A DNA stretch of 11,827 nt from Chitinophagales bacterium (GTDB lineage: Bacteria > Bacteroidota > Bacteroidia > Chitinophagales > UBA2359), in contig JAHDDN010000137.1 in NCBI GenBank assembly GCA_020629335.1, forward strand, positions 1-11,827, given 5' to 3'. The notes below the pieces were generated by a model. That model did not search any database, was not told the DNA's origin, and worked only from the letters and a program-made list of their open reading frames with translations. The position numbers were made by a program, and so were the translations under genes. Shown here piece after piece: positions 5,793 through 11,561 of this stretch (its first letter is position 1; every line of letters begins with the position of its first letter).

Positions 5793-5831
<39 letters not shown>

Positions 5832-5844
5832 TTTATTCTTTTCT

Positions 5845-6029: not shown

Positions 6030-6102
6030 CCCTTTCTAATTTTGCATTCGACTGTAGGGGCGCTACCTATGTGTGTGCCCACGAATGCAAAATTAGAAAG
6101 GG
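6030..6102. repeat. Perfect 21-bp inverted repeat enclosing a 31-bp spacer
   Basis: The left arm 6030-6050 (beginning CCCTTTCTAATTTTG) and the right arm 6082-6102 (ending AATTAGAAAGGG) are exact reverse complements over 21 bases. The 31-base spacer holds the second TGTAGGGGC...CTATGTGT element. There is no T-run after the right arm, so it does not look like a terminator. It could be a REP/BIME-like or miniature mobile element, or the footprint of one element inserted into another. Confidence 0.85.
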
Positions 6103-6154: not shown

Positions 6155-6240
6155 CTTGTCTGCCTTTCAGGCCAGCCTGCGTTTGCCTAAGCTCCATAAG
6201 TCGCATCATATACGGCCCATACCGCTACCATCCCTAAGCC
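6155..6240 (+). repeat. Interspersed repeat, left copy (about 85 bp, 44-bp perfect core)
   Basis: Positions 6197-6240 are identical to 11518-11561 over 44 bases, in the same orientation. The similarity extends leftwards with small gaps to 6155 (CTTGTCTGC ... GCCAGCC ... CTAAGC) against 11479. The two copies enclose the methyltransferase/nuclease operon, the Rpn remnant and the lipoprotein gene. Confidence 0.9.
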
Positions 6241-6692: not shown

Positions 6693-9683
6693 ATGAATCA
6701 GGAATTAAAATATAGCCTAGAGAAACTAGAAATGCTCGGGAATCCTAATTCTGGGTTAGTTCCTGTCCACGAAATTGATTCAAACCAGAATTTACGGCCT
6801 GAAGAATTTATTGCATTAGAAAATGCAAAAAAATACAAAGCCCAGTATGTGTATTTTAGGAGGTTCGAAAATCGACCATCAGTACCGCAGGTTTATCTCT
6901 ATGATTATACGAACCAGTATGATATAGATAAAAGTGAACTGACTTATTTACACAAACAACTTTATAGTTCAGGTTCTGTACCAATGTTTTTTATTTTTAC
7001 CAAACAAGATGTTCGGATTTTTAATTGTTTTGAGCGACCAGCCAAAGGTAGAGAACTTAAATATACTCCTCTTAAAACTATAAAACTTGCTTCAAATTTA
7101 TCGGAAACGATTGATGATGAAATCCAAGAAGAGTTCAAAGCCTTTTCAGGAAAGTCATTTGACAATGGTACATTTTGGGAGAATTCTAAATACAGTAATA
7201 AGTTTAAGTTTAGTAATAGTGCTTATGAAAAATTATTGATAGAACTCAAACAAGCATTAAAAGATATAATTTACCAAGAAATTTTACCTGCTAATTTTGC
7301 TCGCAAAATAATGGTTATTTCCATCCTTATTAAATATTTAGAGGAACGTGAAGATGAACAAGGGAATAAAGTATTTCCGATCAACTTCTTTTCTCATTTT
7401 TCAGAAGGTGCTACAAAATTTACTGATATTTTATATAAAAAAGGGGGTTATCTGGAATTACTAGATTATCTTGCTAAGCACTTTAATGGTGGGATTTTTC
7501 AACTTGAAGATGGTGAGAGAAAATTTCTTGCTAATCGAGATTTATCAAGATTTGGTCAATTTTTAGATGGAGAGATAGATGGGACTCAATTTGTATTTTG
7601 GAGACTTTACTCATTCAATGATTTACCAGTTGAATTAATCAGTAATATATATGAAGAGTTTCTAGGAAAAGAACCAGGAGTTGTATATACACCTCCTTAT
7701 TTGGTTAATTTTTTGCTTGATGAAGCAATGCCATTAAGTAGCGATGAAACCAATTTTAAAATACTCGATCCCGCCTGCGGTTCAGGAGTTTTTCTTGTTG
7801 GTGCATATCGTAGATTGATTTACAGATGGAGGAAAAAAAATAACTGGAAATATCCCGATTTAAAAATTTTAAAGAAGTTGCTCCGAGAAAACATTTATGG
7901 TGTAGAGCTGAAAAAAGAAGCAGTTGATTTAACTATTTTTAGTTTGAGTTTGGCTTTATGCGATGAGTTAACTCCTTTACAAATCTGGAAACATCTTCAA
8001 TTTGACGATCTTTATAAAGAGAATATTCTTCATGATGACTTTTTTAGCGTCATTTCTGATAAAAAATTTCAACAACAATTTGATTTGATAATTGGAAATC
8101 CACCTTTTGAAGCTAAGTTAACAGAAGCAGCTAAAAGGTTAGAAGTAATCAAAGGCAAAAAAAGAACAATAACAGTTTTATCTGAAGATAATGAAGAGAA
8201 GGATTTATTTATAAAGCTTCCTGATAACCAAATCGCTTTGCTTTTCCTTGAGCAATCAATTGAGCTTTGTAAAAAAGACAAAGGGCTTGTATGCCTTATT
8301 CAACCATCTGGACCTTTGCTTTACAATAATTCATCTTTTCAATTCAGGCAAGTATTACTGAAAAAATATAATATTCCTCAAATAATAGACTTTACACATC
8401 TTAGTAGGGTTCTTTTTGGTAGAAATGGAGATGTAGCAACAGCTGCTATTTTTGTTAAGAATGAAACTTCTAAACGAAAGGGATTACTTCATGTAACTGC
8501 TCGACGGACGAAACCACATAAGGAAAAACTATATTTTGAACTTGATACTTATGACTTTCATTATGTCCCATTTCGTTTAGCTATTAGTGATCCATTAATT
8601 TGGAAATCCAACTTTTTAGGGGGTAGTAGATATCATCAATTAGTGAATAGGTTAAAGTCTTTTCCTACACTACAAGATTATTTGAGTTCAAAAGAAGAAG
8701 ATGGTTGGGTAGTAAGTGAAGGTTTTACTGCAGCAACTCAAAATGATAATGCTAAACTCCAAGAACTTTCAAGGGCTAACCAAGAGTCAGAACTAATAGA
8801 ATTTAAAAATAAATTAGAGGCTCCTTTTTTAATGAATAAAAACTTTCTTCCAACTCAAGCTTTAACTGTTAAAGGAATAAATAAAGATCAGATTCAAGAT
8901 TCATTACCTACTAAATACTTTCATAGTAAAGGGAAACCTCAAATATATCTTGCCCCTCATGTTTTGATAAAAGAGTTAATTACAGAGGGGGGGATACCTA
9001 TTGCATTAAGTATGGAAGATTTAGCATTTCAAAGAAGAATCATAGGTATACATGCACCTTTTGAAGATGTAAATTTACTTAAAGATATTGTAGATAGGTT
9101 TTCAAATAGTAAACTGTATTCATTTTACATTGCGTTGACGAGTGGCCAGTACTTAATTAATAAATCATCAGCTATTTATAAACAAGATATAGATCAACTT
9201 CCATTTCCGATTGATAAAAATGAATTACTAATCTCTTTAGAAGAAGAAATTTTATTGGAAGATTTTAACAATTATTTACTAGAATTTAGGCGTAAAGGAG
9301 AAAATTCTAAAATTGTCTCACAAAATGCATCTTGTCAGCATTTAACAGAATTCGGAGAAACATTTTGTAAAGTACTACAATCTGTTTTTAAATCAATAAA
9401 GCCTTTTCAGTATTTTGAAACTGATTCTTATATATGTTTTCCATTCTACTTTGGAAAAAGACCAGATATTGATTTTAGTGACTCTGAACAAGCTGAACAG
9501 TACATAGAAAGGCTTGTTCAAAAAAACTCAGGAGTAAGCTTAAGATTGACTCGAATTGTTAGAATATATGAGGGGAATATTATTTACTTGATTAAACCGA
9601 AAAAGCTTCGCTATTGGTTAAAATCGATTGCTCTTCGTGATGCAGATGAGACTTTTTCAGACTTAAGAAAACAAGGATTTTAA
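6693..9683 (+). CDS. N6-adenine DNA methyltransferase of a restriction-modification-like system
   Basis: A 996-residue class I SAM-dependent DNA methyltransferase expected to methylate adenine N6 at a specific site. Residues 1 to about 340 form a large N-terminal region with no motif I can name (it includes QYVYFRRFENRPSVPQVYLY and FFIFTKQDVRIFN). The catalytic domain carries motif I, DPACGSG at 359-365 followed by VFLVGAYRRL, an acidic YGVELKKEAVDL segment, and motif IV NPPF at 469-472. A TaqI-like specificity region follows, ending in the typical IYKQDIDQLPFP (to residue 839). A further extension of about 155 residues ends LRYWLKSIALRDADETFSDL. The start is fixed: TAA lies in frame immediately before the ATG. 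The stop overlaps the next gene's ATG by one base, implying translational coupling. Hand counts of single 60-base lines gave 14 G+C at 7201 against 25 in the acyl-CoA dehydrogenase at 5101, consistent with acquisition. Methyltransferase activity is well supported; the target site is unknown. Confidence 0.92.
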   Translation: MNQELKYSLEKLEMLGNPNSGLVPVHEIDSNQNLRPEEFIALENAKKYKAQYVYFRRFENRPSVPQVYLYDYTNQYDIDKSELTYLHKQLYSSGSVPMFFIFTKQDVRIFNCFERPAKGRELKYTPLKTIKLASNLSETIDDEIQEEFKAFSGKSFDNGTFWENSKYSNKFKFSNSAYEKLLIELKQALKDIIYQEILPANFARKIMVISILIKYLEEREDEQGNKVFPINFFSHFSEGATKFTDILYKKGGYLELLDYLAKHFNGGIFQLEDGERKFLANRDLSRFGQFLDGEIDGTQFVFWRLYSFNDLPVELISNIYEEFLGKEPGVVYTPPYLVNFLLDEAMPLSSDETNFKILDPACGSGVFLVGAYRRLIYRWRKKNNWKYPDLKILKKLLRENIYGVELKKEAVDLTIFSLSLALCDELTPLQIWKHLQFDDLYKENILHDDFFSVISDKKFQQQFDLIIGNPPFEAKLTEAAKRLEVIKGKKRTITVLSEDNEEKDLFIKLPDNQIALLFLEQSIELCKKDKGLVCLIQPSGPLLYNNSSFQFRQVLLKKYNIPQIIDFTHLSRVLFGRNGDVATAAIFVKNETSKRKGLLHVTARRTKPHKEKLYFELDTYDFHYVPFRLAISDPLIWKSNFLGGSRYHQLVNRLKSFPTLQDYLSSKEEDGWVVSEGFTAATQNDNAKLQELSRANQESELIEFKNKLEAPFLMNKNFLPTQALTVKGINKDQIQDSLPTKYFHSKGKPQIYLAPHVLIKELITEGGIPIALSMEDLAFQRRIIGIHAPFEDVNLLKDIVDRFSNSKLYSFYIALTSGQYLINKSSAIYKQDIDQLPFPIDKNELLISLEEEILLEDFNNYLLEFRRKGENSKIVSQNASCQHLTEFGETFCKVLQSVFKSIKPFQYFETDSYICFPFYFGKRPDIDFSDSEQAEQYIERLVQKNSGVSLRLTRIVRIYEGNIIYLIKPKKLRYWLKSIALRDADETFSDLRKQGF

Positions 9684-9685
9684 TG
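9673..9685 (+). promoter_or_regulatory. Shine-Dalgarno-like AAGGA and overlapping TAATG
   Basis: AAGGA at 9673-9677 lies five bases before the ATG at 9683-9685, inside the end of the methyltransferase gene. The methyltransferase stop TAA (9681-9683) shares its last base with this ATG. It is the clearest Shine-Dalgarno-like site in the window and supports the chosen start of the nuclease gene. Confidence 0.65.
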
Positions 9686-10408
9686 CTATCAGATGCTTCT
9701 CGAAATATCAGTAGTGGTCAGCTAACTAGTGGGATTGAATTAGATTCATCAATTAAATCAGTTATTGAATTTATTGAAGTCTATTTTACAGAATTTTCAC
9801 AAAAGGTAAAAGGAGAAATAACGACTAGTGAAAAATCGTTAACTGATAGGGTTTGTAAATATTTCAATCGTAATGCTGGAAAATATCCATTTTATTTTCA
9901 GCACGAAAATGTAGAGGATCATACTACTGGTAAAAGTCCTCAAATTGATATTGCTACACTTTCGAGAAGTGAACAAATAATAATTGGTGATAGAAGCTAC
10001 AATGAGTTTGATCCTTTTTTTGCAATAGAAGCAAAACGACTTCCAACTCCAGGACATAAACGTGAAAAAGAATATGTAGTTGGTCATGAGAGGCAATGCG
10101 GTGGAATTGAACGATTTAAAAAAGAAATTCATGGTAAGAACTTGAAATTTGCAGCCATCATTGGGTATATCCAAGAGAAAAACGGAAACCATTGGTTTCT
10201 AAAAATCAATGAATGGATTGGAGAACTAATAACTTCTAATCCTGCCTTCTGGAAAAAGGATGATAGACTAATTAAACAGAATACAAAACCGAAAGGTTTA
10301 GATAAATTTATCTCAAAAAACTTTAAATCTGATGATAATGGACAAGAAGAATTTATAAATTTATTTCATTTTTGGATCAGTTTAGTTGATGAAAAAAAAT
10401 CAGCCTAA
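9683..10408 (+). CDS. PD-(D/E)XK-type nuclease, probable restriction partner of the methyltransferase
   Basis: A 241-residue protein whose central part shows a PD-(D/E)XK nuclease core: PQIDIATL with D89, then FFAIEAKRLP with E116 and K118. An upstream glutamate in YFQHENVED could also serve at the metal site. Downstream is a distinctive stretch REKEYVVGHE...GGIERFKKEIHG, then a hydrophobic strand FAAIIGYIQ and HWFLKINEWI. I recall GGI-x-RFK sequences of this kind in uncharacterised proteins, but I cannot name a family. One-base overlap with the methyltransferase, a good Shine-Dalgarno site and the same AT-rich composition argue that the two are one operon, so the likely role is cutting DNA that lacks the partner's methylation. 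A modification-dependent or abortive nuclease is the alternative. No signal peptide or membrane segment is seen. Nuclease fold: fairly sure; restriction role: inferred. Confidence 0.8.
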   Translation: MLSDASRNISSGQLTSGIELDSSIKSVIEFIEVYFTEFSQKVKGEITTSEKSLTDRVCKYFNRNAGKYPFYFQHENVEDHTTGKSPQIDIATLSRSEQIIIGDRSYNEFDPFFAIEAKRLPTPGHKREKEYVVGHERQCGGIERFKKEIHGKNLKFAAIIGYIQEKNGNHWFLKINEWIGELITSNPAFWKKDDRLIKQNTKPKGLDKFISKNFKSDDNGQEEFINLFHFWISLVDEKKSA

Positions 10409-10442: not shown

Positions 10443-10769
10443 TTGGCTATGAAACTCATTTACATCATGAAGAATTTAGAAAATATCAAAGGAATAGATC
10501 AACTGCCCAAATTCTTAACAGAGGATTGGATAGAACAAGCAATGAATAAATTAGATAAAAGTCAGATGACTCCAAAACAAAGAATGCATTATGAAATGAT
10601 GATGGCTAAAAATGCATCTATTATTGAAATGTTAAAAGAGGAAGAACGCCTACAAATTGCTAAAGAAACAGCCAAAGAAATGGCTAAGAAAATGAAAGCA
10701 AAAGGAATGTCAAATTCTGAAATTCAAGAATTGACAGGTCTAAGTATCGAGGAAATTGAAAATCTTTAG
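10443..10769 (+). pseudogene. C-terminal remnant of an Rpn/PD-(D/E)XK transposase-family protein
   Basis: The frame reads KLIYIMKNLENIKGIDQLPKF and ends AKKMKAKGMSNSEIQELTGLSIEEIENL. That ending, a charged helix followed by a small helix-turn-helix-like tail, is characteristic of the C-terminus of Rpn recombination-promoting nucleases / PDDEXK_2 family putative transposases, which normally run to about 300 residues. Here only about 105 remain. The catalytic nuclease part is missing: the frame is open back only to the stop at 10419-10421, and the preceding sequence is the end of the nuclease gene. The first possible start is TTG at 10443, and ATGs follow at 10449 and 10467. It begins 34 bases after the nuclease gene and may ride on its transcript. 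It could still yield a small helical protein, but decay of a once complete gene is the simpler reading. Confidence 0.72.
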
Positions 10770-11478: not shown

Positions 11479-11561
11479 CTTGTCTGCTAAAGCCAGCCAT
11501 CGCATCACTAAGCGCCGTAAGTCGCATCATATACGGCCCATACCGCTACCATCCCTAAGCC
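11479..11561 (+). repeat. Interspersed repeat, right copy (about 83 bp, 44-bp perfect core)
   Basis: 11518-11561 is identical to 6197-6240, in direct orientation; the left part aligns to 6155-6196 with gaps. The distance between the two cores is about 5.3 kb. As on the left side, a TTCTGTCGCAAG copy lies downstream (11762), though at a larger distance and with unrelated sequence between. Confidence 0.9.

What the first reader, a model, noticed from the sequence alone, without database searches (positions are those of the whole stretch)
6693..10408. Two-gene methyltransferase plus PD-(D/E)XK nuclease cassette that fits no named system I know
Seen: a 996-residue protein with DPACGSG and NPPF motifs overlaps by one base a 241-residue protein with D89...E116-A-K118. 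Known: N6-adenine methyltransferases paired with PD-(D/E)XK nucleases make Type II restriction-modification systems. Inferred: this is a defence cassette. It is unusual because the methyltransferase is far larger than a stand-alone Type II enzyme (the size of a Type IIG or BREX PglX-like protein) yet is paired with a small separate nuclease. No helicase, ATPase or specificity subunit is visible.
Basis: partly seen in the sequence, partly recalled or inferred. Interest (0 to 1): 0.75.

Follow-up and report, generated by a model that had tools for sequence, protein, structure and literature searches.

The report
Split methylase-nuclease DNA defence pair
Two neighbouring bacterial genes appear to form a DNA-protection system in which a large methylating enzyme reads the target sequence and marks the cell's own DNA, while a small separate cutter with no target-reading of its own probably cuts unmarked DNA, a layout that the searched family libraries do not name.

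Summary
A 996-aa gamma-class N6-adenine methyltransferase with a fused recognition domain (6693-9683) overlaps by one base a 241-aa PD-(D/E)XK protein (9683-10408) whose D89, E116 and K118 are invariant in 105 of 105 aligned homologues. The methyltransferase lies directly upstream in 20 of 23 genome nuclease loci (two exceptions are truncated remnants, one a contig edge) and in 15 of 15 fetched plasmid regions. In 25 genome loci no third gene recurs in more than 3.

Key test: across 61 paired systems nuclease identity follows the methyltransferase backbone (rho 0.86) but not its recognition domain (rho 0.00). So the nuclease probably has no specificity of its own and is guided by the methyltransferase: a Type IIG-like restriction-modification system with its nuclease in trans and no visible translocase, not an orthodox Type II system.

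No Pfam, NCBIfam or PADLOC model reaches cut-off for the nuclease. The split examples described in the paper sections read have translocases and other nuclease folds. Verdict: real, new variant of a known kind. Activity, complex formation and defence are untested.

The parts
6693..9683 (+). large N6-adenine DNA methyltransferase with fused recognition domain (996 aa)
6693..7142 (+). N-terminal domain, residues 1-150: predicted helix-strand-strand-helix-strand-strand, no conserved D/E...(E)xK set; candidate vestigial R domain (inference)
   Evidence: profile comparison did not confirm
7143..7652 (+). helical connector, residues 151-320; the HsdM/BrxX/DrdV-like region starts near residue 176
7653..8612 (+). 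gamma-class methyltransferase catalytic domain, residues 321-640; motif I DPACGSG at 7767-7787, motif IV NPPF at 8097-8108
8643..9242 (+). hypervariable target recognition domain, residues 651-850
9333..9680 (+). conserved C-terminal module, residues 881-996 (KP..RYW...RDADE..D); stays with backbone and nuclease when the recognition domain changes; candidate docking or dimerisation element (inference)
9683..10408 (+). small PD-(D/E)XK nuclease subunit (241 aa); D89 at 9947-9949, E116 at 10028-10030, K118 at 10034-10036

Best explanation
A two-gene, Type IIG-like restriction-modification system with the nuclease in trans and no visible translocase. The 996-aa protein binds an (unknown) target through its fused recognition domain and methylates adenine to mark self DNA. 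The 241-aa PD-(D/E)XK protein has no specificity of its own; it is recruited by the methyltransferase and cuts DNA when the site is unmodified. Shown computationally: gene pairing, gamma-MTase plus TRD fold, invariant nuclease catalytic residues, and no detectable link between nuclease sequence and TRD. Inferred: a physical complex, cleavage near the site, defence function, and that the N-terminal domain is a vestigial Type IIG nuclease domain.
Confidence: 0.72

Rival explanations
1. Orthodox Type II system: the small protein is a restriction enzyme that recognises the same site independently of the methyltransferase.
Against: Nuclease sequence does not follow the TRD in any 20-residue window (highest partial rho 0.14, or 0.18 in the 53-system subset, both at residues 101-120), whereas methyltransferase windows 521-880 do (0.36-0.85). 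With TRDs at 26-37% identity the nuclease stays 88-89% identical.
Confidence: 0.1
2. A BREX- or abortive-type system: the methyltransferase marks self, and the nuclease is an effector that attacks any DNA or kills the cell on infection instead of cutting at the site.
Against: No third gene recurs in more than 3 of 25 genome loci, so no BREX gene set is conserved. The nuclease co-varies with the methyltransferase backbone (rho 0.86), as expected for a partner in one complex, though shared descent in one operon would give that too. The Foldseek hit is weak (E 0.03, probability 0.38).
Confidence: 0.1
3. The large protein is itself an active Type IIG enzyme, and the small nuclease is an accessory, for example a second-strand cutter.
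For: The N-terminal domain sits where DrdV carries its nuclease domain and has a similar order of helices and strands. PADLOC scores the protein best with Type IIG models.
Against: In 86 methyltransferases the N-terminal 150 residues hold no conserved D/E plus (E)xK set: E43 (82 of 86) and D71 (78 of 86) are conserved, but no lysine reaches 80%. The separate protein keeps its triad in 105 of 105.
Confidence: 0.05

Closest known systems
Type IIG/IIL single-chain RM enzymes (MmeI, DrdV, BpuSI, Eco57I)
   Same: Gamma-class methyltransferase with helical connector and fused recognition domain; similar length; one recognition module for modification and, as inferred here, restriction.
   Different: Nuclease activity lies in a separate 241-aa protein; the N-terminal domain lacks a conserved catalytic set. 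[quoted passage not shown]
Type IIG-like systems with separate endonuclease peptides (AchA6III, OspHL35III, MexAMORF1192P; PMC4752239, section 10 and passages with the S4 figure legend read)
   Same: Methyltransferase-TRD on one peptide, endonuclease on another.
   Different: Those three have translocases and PLD, GIY-YIG or HNH nucleases; here no translocase is conserved and the nuclease is PD-(D/E)XK. The paper counts 76 Type IIG-like systems that differ in presence or absence of a translocase; I did not see its S3 table, so a pair like this one may be among them.
PADLOC model PDLC03603 'REase_MTase_IIG'
   Same: Matches the distant-branch methyltransferase L053 over positions 3-1009 of 1016 at E 1.5e-199, and the window protein at 3.6e-38.
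   Different: That locus also has its own small nuclease-like gene next door, so the single-gene Type IIG label looks incomplete there.
BREX PglX/BrxX
   Different: NCBIfam PglX scores are 31.7-43.6 bits against cut-offs of 400-900; no BREX gene set conserved in 25 loci.
Haloferax HVO_A0006/HVO_A0237 (PMC4389544, passages read)
   Same: A split Type IIG enzyme with a PD-(D/E)XK protein in trans was proposed there as one possibility.
   Different: There the nuclease is a Type IIG N-terminal fragment encoded apart from its possible partner on the same replicon; here it is a distinct family in a conserved gene pair.

Membership tests
Type IIG restriction-modification enzyme | Active N-terminal PD-(D/E)XK domain in the same chain as the methyltransferase | tested here: not met
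   No conserved D/E plus (E)xK set in residues 1-150 of 86 methyltransferases; separate nuclease gene. Whether the domain has the nuclease fold is open.
Type IIG restriction-modification enzyme | Gamma-class methyltransferase with fused recognition domain | tested here: met
   Pfam and fold matches; hypervariable residues 651-850.
Type IIG-like system (definition in PMC4752239) | One TRD serves modification and restriction | tested here: inconclusive
   Supported indirectly: nuclease does not co-vary with TRD in 61 systems. Direct proof needs experiment.
Type IIG-like system (definition in PMC4752239) | Cleavage of unmodified sites | not testable with these tools
   Needs biochemistry.
Orthodox Type II RM | Restriction enzyme with its own matching specificity | tested here: not met
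   Indirect sequence test: nuclease unchanged while TRD changes.
BREX | PglX above model cut-off, with a multi-gene set (gene set recalled) | tested here: not met
   Scores far below PglX cut-offs; no third gene in more than 3 of 25 genome loci.
Type I RM | Helicase-bearing HsdR and separate S subunit | tested here: not met
   Not visible among the window's ORFs and not conserved in 25 loci.
MADS | MAD2 methyltransferase above model cut-off | tested here: not met
   43.3 bits against 720.
PD-(D/E)XK nuclease superfamily (small protein) | D...ExK catalytic residues on neighbouring core strands | tested here: met
   D89, E116, K118 in 105 of 105, on strands 87-94 and 113-120 of the model.
PD-(D/E)XK nuclease superfamily (small protein) | Restriction-endonuclease-like fold | tested here: inconclusive

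The most novel reading that the evidence does not exclude
These pairs are a distinct, widespread class: a motor-less analogue of Type I systems in which a nuclease-only subunit works in trans with a fused methyltransferase-recognition chain whose own N-terminal nuclease domain has died. It would be a living intermediate between Type I and Type IIG, and part of what catalogues list as stand-alone Type IIG would really be these split systems.
Probability: 0.4. Interest if true: 0.65.

Novelty: new variant of a known kind. Interest (0 to 1): 0.55.

Why it matters
If true, one exchangeable recognition module directs both marking and cutting while the cutter stays constant. Specificity can then change in one step without self-damage, and new enzymes could be made by swapping one domain. 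It supplies a natural test of how Type I and Type IIG systems are related. It also bears on annotation: a PADLOC-type search can name such a methyltransferase as a complete Type IIG enzyme, while the nuclease is called a hypothetical protein in all 14 annotated plasmid regions fetched.

Tried and rejected
Orthodox Type II with an independently specific nuclease: disfavoured after the co-variation test. BREX, MADS, Type I: scores far below cut-off or no partner genes. Homology between the methyltransferase N-terminal domain and the trans nuclease: none found (hhalign probability 0.3%). Homology of the N-terminal domain with MmeI_N (6 sequences): none found (0.4%). A PF13588 set was fetched for the same purpose, but by eye was mostly another stand-alone family and was not used. 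PADLOC model PDLC03623 found nothing at E <= 1e-60 in 118 genomes and its controls did not ring either, so that is not evidence of absence. Phage records gave no relative of the nuclease, nor did one scan of viral contigs. Rfam gave nothing at gathering scores. The promoter scan was below shuffled expectation (13 against 22.2). A repeat of the TRD test on plasmid pairs was uninformative. The nuclease profile matched only a septin, by chance, in the PDB (E 0.37). Weak sub-cut-off family hits: Tox-HNH-HHH for the window nuclease, PDDEXK_9 for the L053 nuclease, PADLOC PD_DExK for the L003 nuclease.

Full report
What is there. The window is 11,827 bp, equal to the longest contig listed for its nuclease, so probably a whole metagenome contig. 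Neighbouring genes point to Bacteroidota: a Porin_10 protein, an LVIVD-repeat protein with a sub-cut-off Por-secretion tail, and an acyl-CoA dehydrogenase. No parent genome is held. ORF 6693-9683 encodes 996 aa and ORF 9683-10408 encodes 241 aa; stop and start share one base.

The pair is a unit. A nuclease profile hit 8 of 395 genomes of the Bacteroidales genome's phylum and 13 of 400 of one order, each count including the centre genome; in the Aminicenantes group it hit 1 of 149, the centre itself. These, with G002, give 23 nuclease loci: 8, 12 new, two in G001 and one in G002. 20 of 23 have the methyltransferase directly upstream on the same strand; L048 and L062 are 116- and 95-aa remnants, and L056 starts 458 bp inside its contig. 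In L055 the methyltransferase ORF is short (798 aa, near a contig end), and in L063 it lies in two frames. A methyltransferase profile in the same 395 genomes, scoring at most two candidates a genome, found 8 loci at E < 1e-130: 7 have the nuclease, and the eighth ends 198 bp after the methyltransferase. Four weaker methyltransferases (L050-L053) each also have a small downstream gene with a D...(E)xK pattern. Profile comparison relates those four genes to the window nuclease (95.7%, E 9e-9) and their methyltransferase N-termini to the window's (96.5%, E 7e-10). Among neighbours of 80 aa or more in 25 loci, only the two genes recur widely; no other cluster exceeds 3 loci. Shorter upstream frames in 22 loci and the window show no shared family. 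On plasmids, 20 records match. I fetched 15: 14 annotated regions have a methyltransferase gene just upstream, confirmed by profile, and the unannotated one, L114, has both frames by profile. In L109 a small ORF lies between. All 14 annotated nucleases are called hypothetical protein. A 61-70 aa ribbon-helix-helix-like ORF precedes the methyltransferase in 13 of the 15 regions (12 annotated; one unannotated in L117), so this branch may have a third, regulatory gene; its profile found nothing in the 28 genome loci or the window.

Who holds the specificity. I assembled 61 methyltransferase-nuclease systems: the window, 6 of the 20 genome loci with both genes, and 54 of the 120 listed methyltransferases matched to a listed nuclease by equal longest-contig length. 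Residues 651-850 are hypervariable: identity 0.30-0.46 in 8 blocks of 25, against a median of 0.68 (0.37-0.94) in the other 32. Over 1,830 comparisons nuclease identity correlates with backbone identity (0.86) but not with recognition-domain identity (0.00). The partial correlation is 0.02, reached by 172 of 500 permutations. No 20-residue nuclease window exceeds 0.14, including its own variable stretch (residues 181-220), whereas methyltransferase windows 521-880 reach 0.36-0.85. The subset of 53 systems from contigs of 10 kb or more, or read in DNA, agrees (partial 0.05; 114 of 500; highest window 0.18). Pairs with backbone of 80% or more have the same median nuclease identity, 72.0%, whether TRDs are below 40% alike (76 pairs) or 60% and above (17 pairs). 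P0128 and P0146 share 96% backbone and 88% nuclease but 37% TRD; P0128 and P0148 share 96%, 89% and 26%. Eleven TRD groups occur with one nuclease group of 44 systems. TRD more alike than backbone by 8 points or more is rare (1 of 1,830), so exchange between distant backbones is not shown. The alphaproteobacterial plasmid pairs show no clean TRD replacement and do not test the point. No orthodox Type II family was run as a positive control.

Mechanism. An orthodox Type II nuclease must recognise the methylated site; a constant nuclease beside changing recognition domains would be mismatched. The simplest explanation is that the methyltransferase positions the nuclease. The C-terminal module 881-996 stays with backbone and nuclease, is very conserved (R973, W975, D983, D985 in at least 84 of 86) and is shared by the distant branch. 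It is a candidate docking or dimerisation element (inference). Defence context is suggested by SIR2, TIR, AbiH or Shedu neighbours in 5 of 14 annotated plasmid regions.

Comparison with print. PMC3874165 (passages and the gamma-MTase section read) describes Type IIG by an N-terminal R domain. PMC4752239 (section 10 and passages with a figure legend read) defines Type IIG-like by a single TRD, counts 76 such systems, and describes three separate-endonuclease examples, all with translocases and with PLD, GIY-YIG or HNH nucleases; its table of all 76 was not seen and may hold pairs like this one. PMC4389544 (passages read) suggested a split Type IIG in Haloferax. PMC6158711 (passages read) calls Type IIB 'motor-less' Type I systems and Type IIG half of one, which this pair resembles. 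PMC4081073 and PMC3936762 were read in passages. Searches listed no paper that I recognised as describing such a PD-(D/E)XK pair; the library holds only open-licence papers, and REBASE itself could not be searched.

Annotation consequence. PADLOC model PDLC03603 (Type IIG) matches the L053 methyltransferase at 1.5e-199 over positions 3-1009 of 1016, yet that gene has its own nuclease-like neighbour. At least this model can label a split system as single-gene.

Noticed in passing
L108, L110-L113, L115-L122, upstream of the methyltransferase: A 61-70 aa ORF with a ribbon-helix-helix-like pattern precedes the methyltransferase in 13 of 15 alphaproteobacterial plasmid regions, several near-identical (12 annotated; L117 1328-1537 unannotated); Pfam RHH hits appear below cut-off in 5 of 6 tested. 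A possible controller protein; its profile finds nothing in the window or 28 genome loci.
   Followed up: partly
window 10443-10769: 108-aa ORF resembling the C-terminus of Rpn-family nucleases (NCBIfam TIGR01784, 3.5e-10, below cut-off); probably a remnant. A 331-aa ORF with a similar C-terminal pattern lies near the Aminicenantes homologue (L001 16539-17534, by eye).
   Followed up: no
window 6171-6240 and 11492-11561: A 70-nt direct repeat (89% identical) flanks the cassette and its downstream ORFs.
   Followed up: no
window 6030-6102: Perfect 21-nt inverted repeat with a 31-nt loop upstream of the cassette, near short tandem repeats at 5793-5837.
   Followed up: no
L048 7064-7414 and L062 5903-6190: Truncated nuclease remnants without a methyltransferase; L048 lies beside transposase-like ORFs in the opposite direction (by eye).
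   Followed up: partly
L050: The distant-branch pair sits among relaxase-like, coupling-protein-like and RadC-like ORFs, suggesting a conjugative element (by eye).
   Followed up: no
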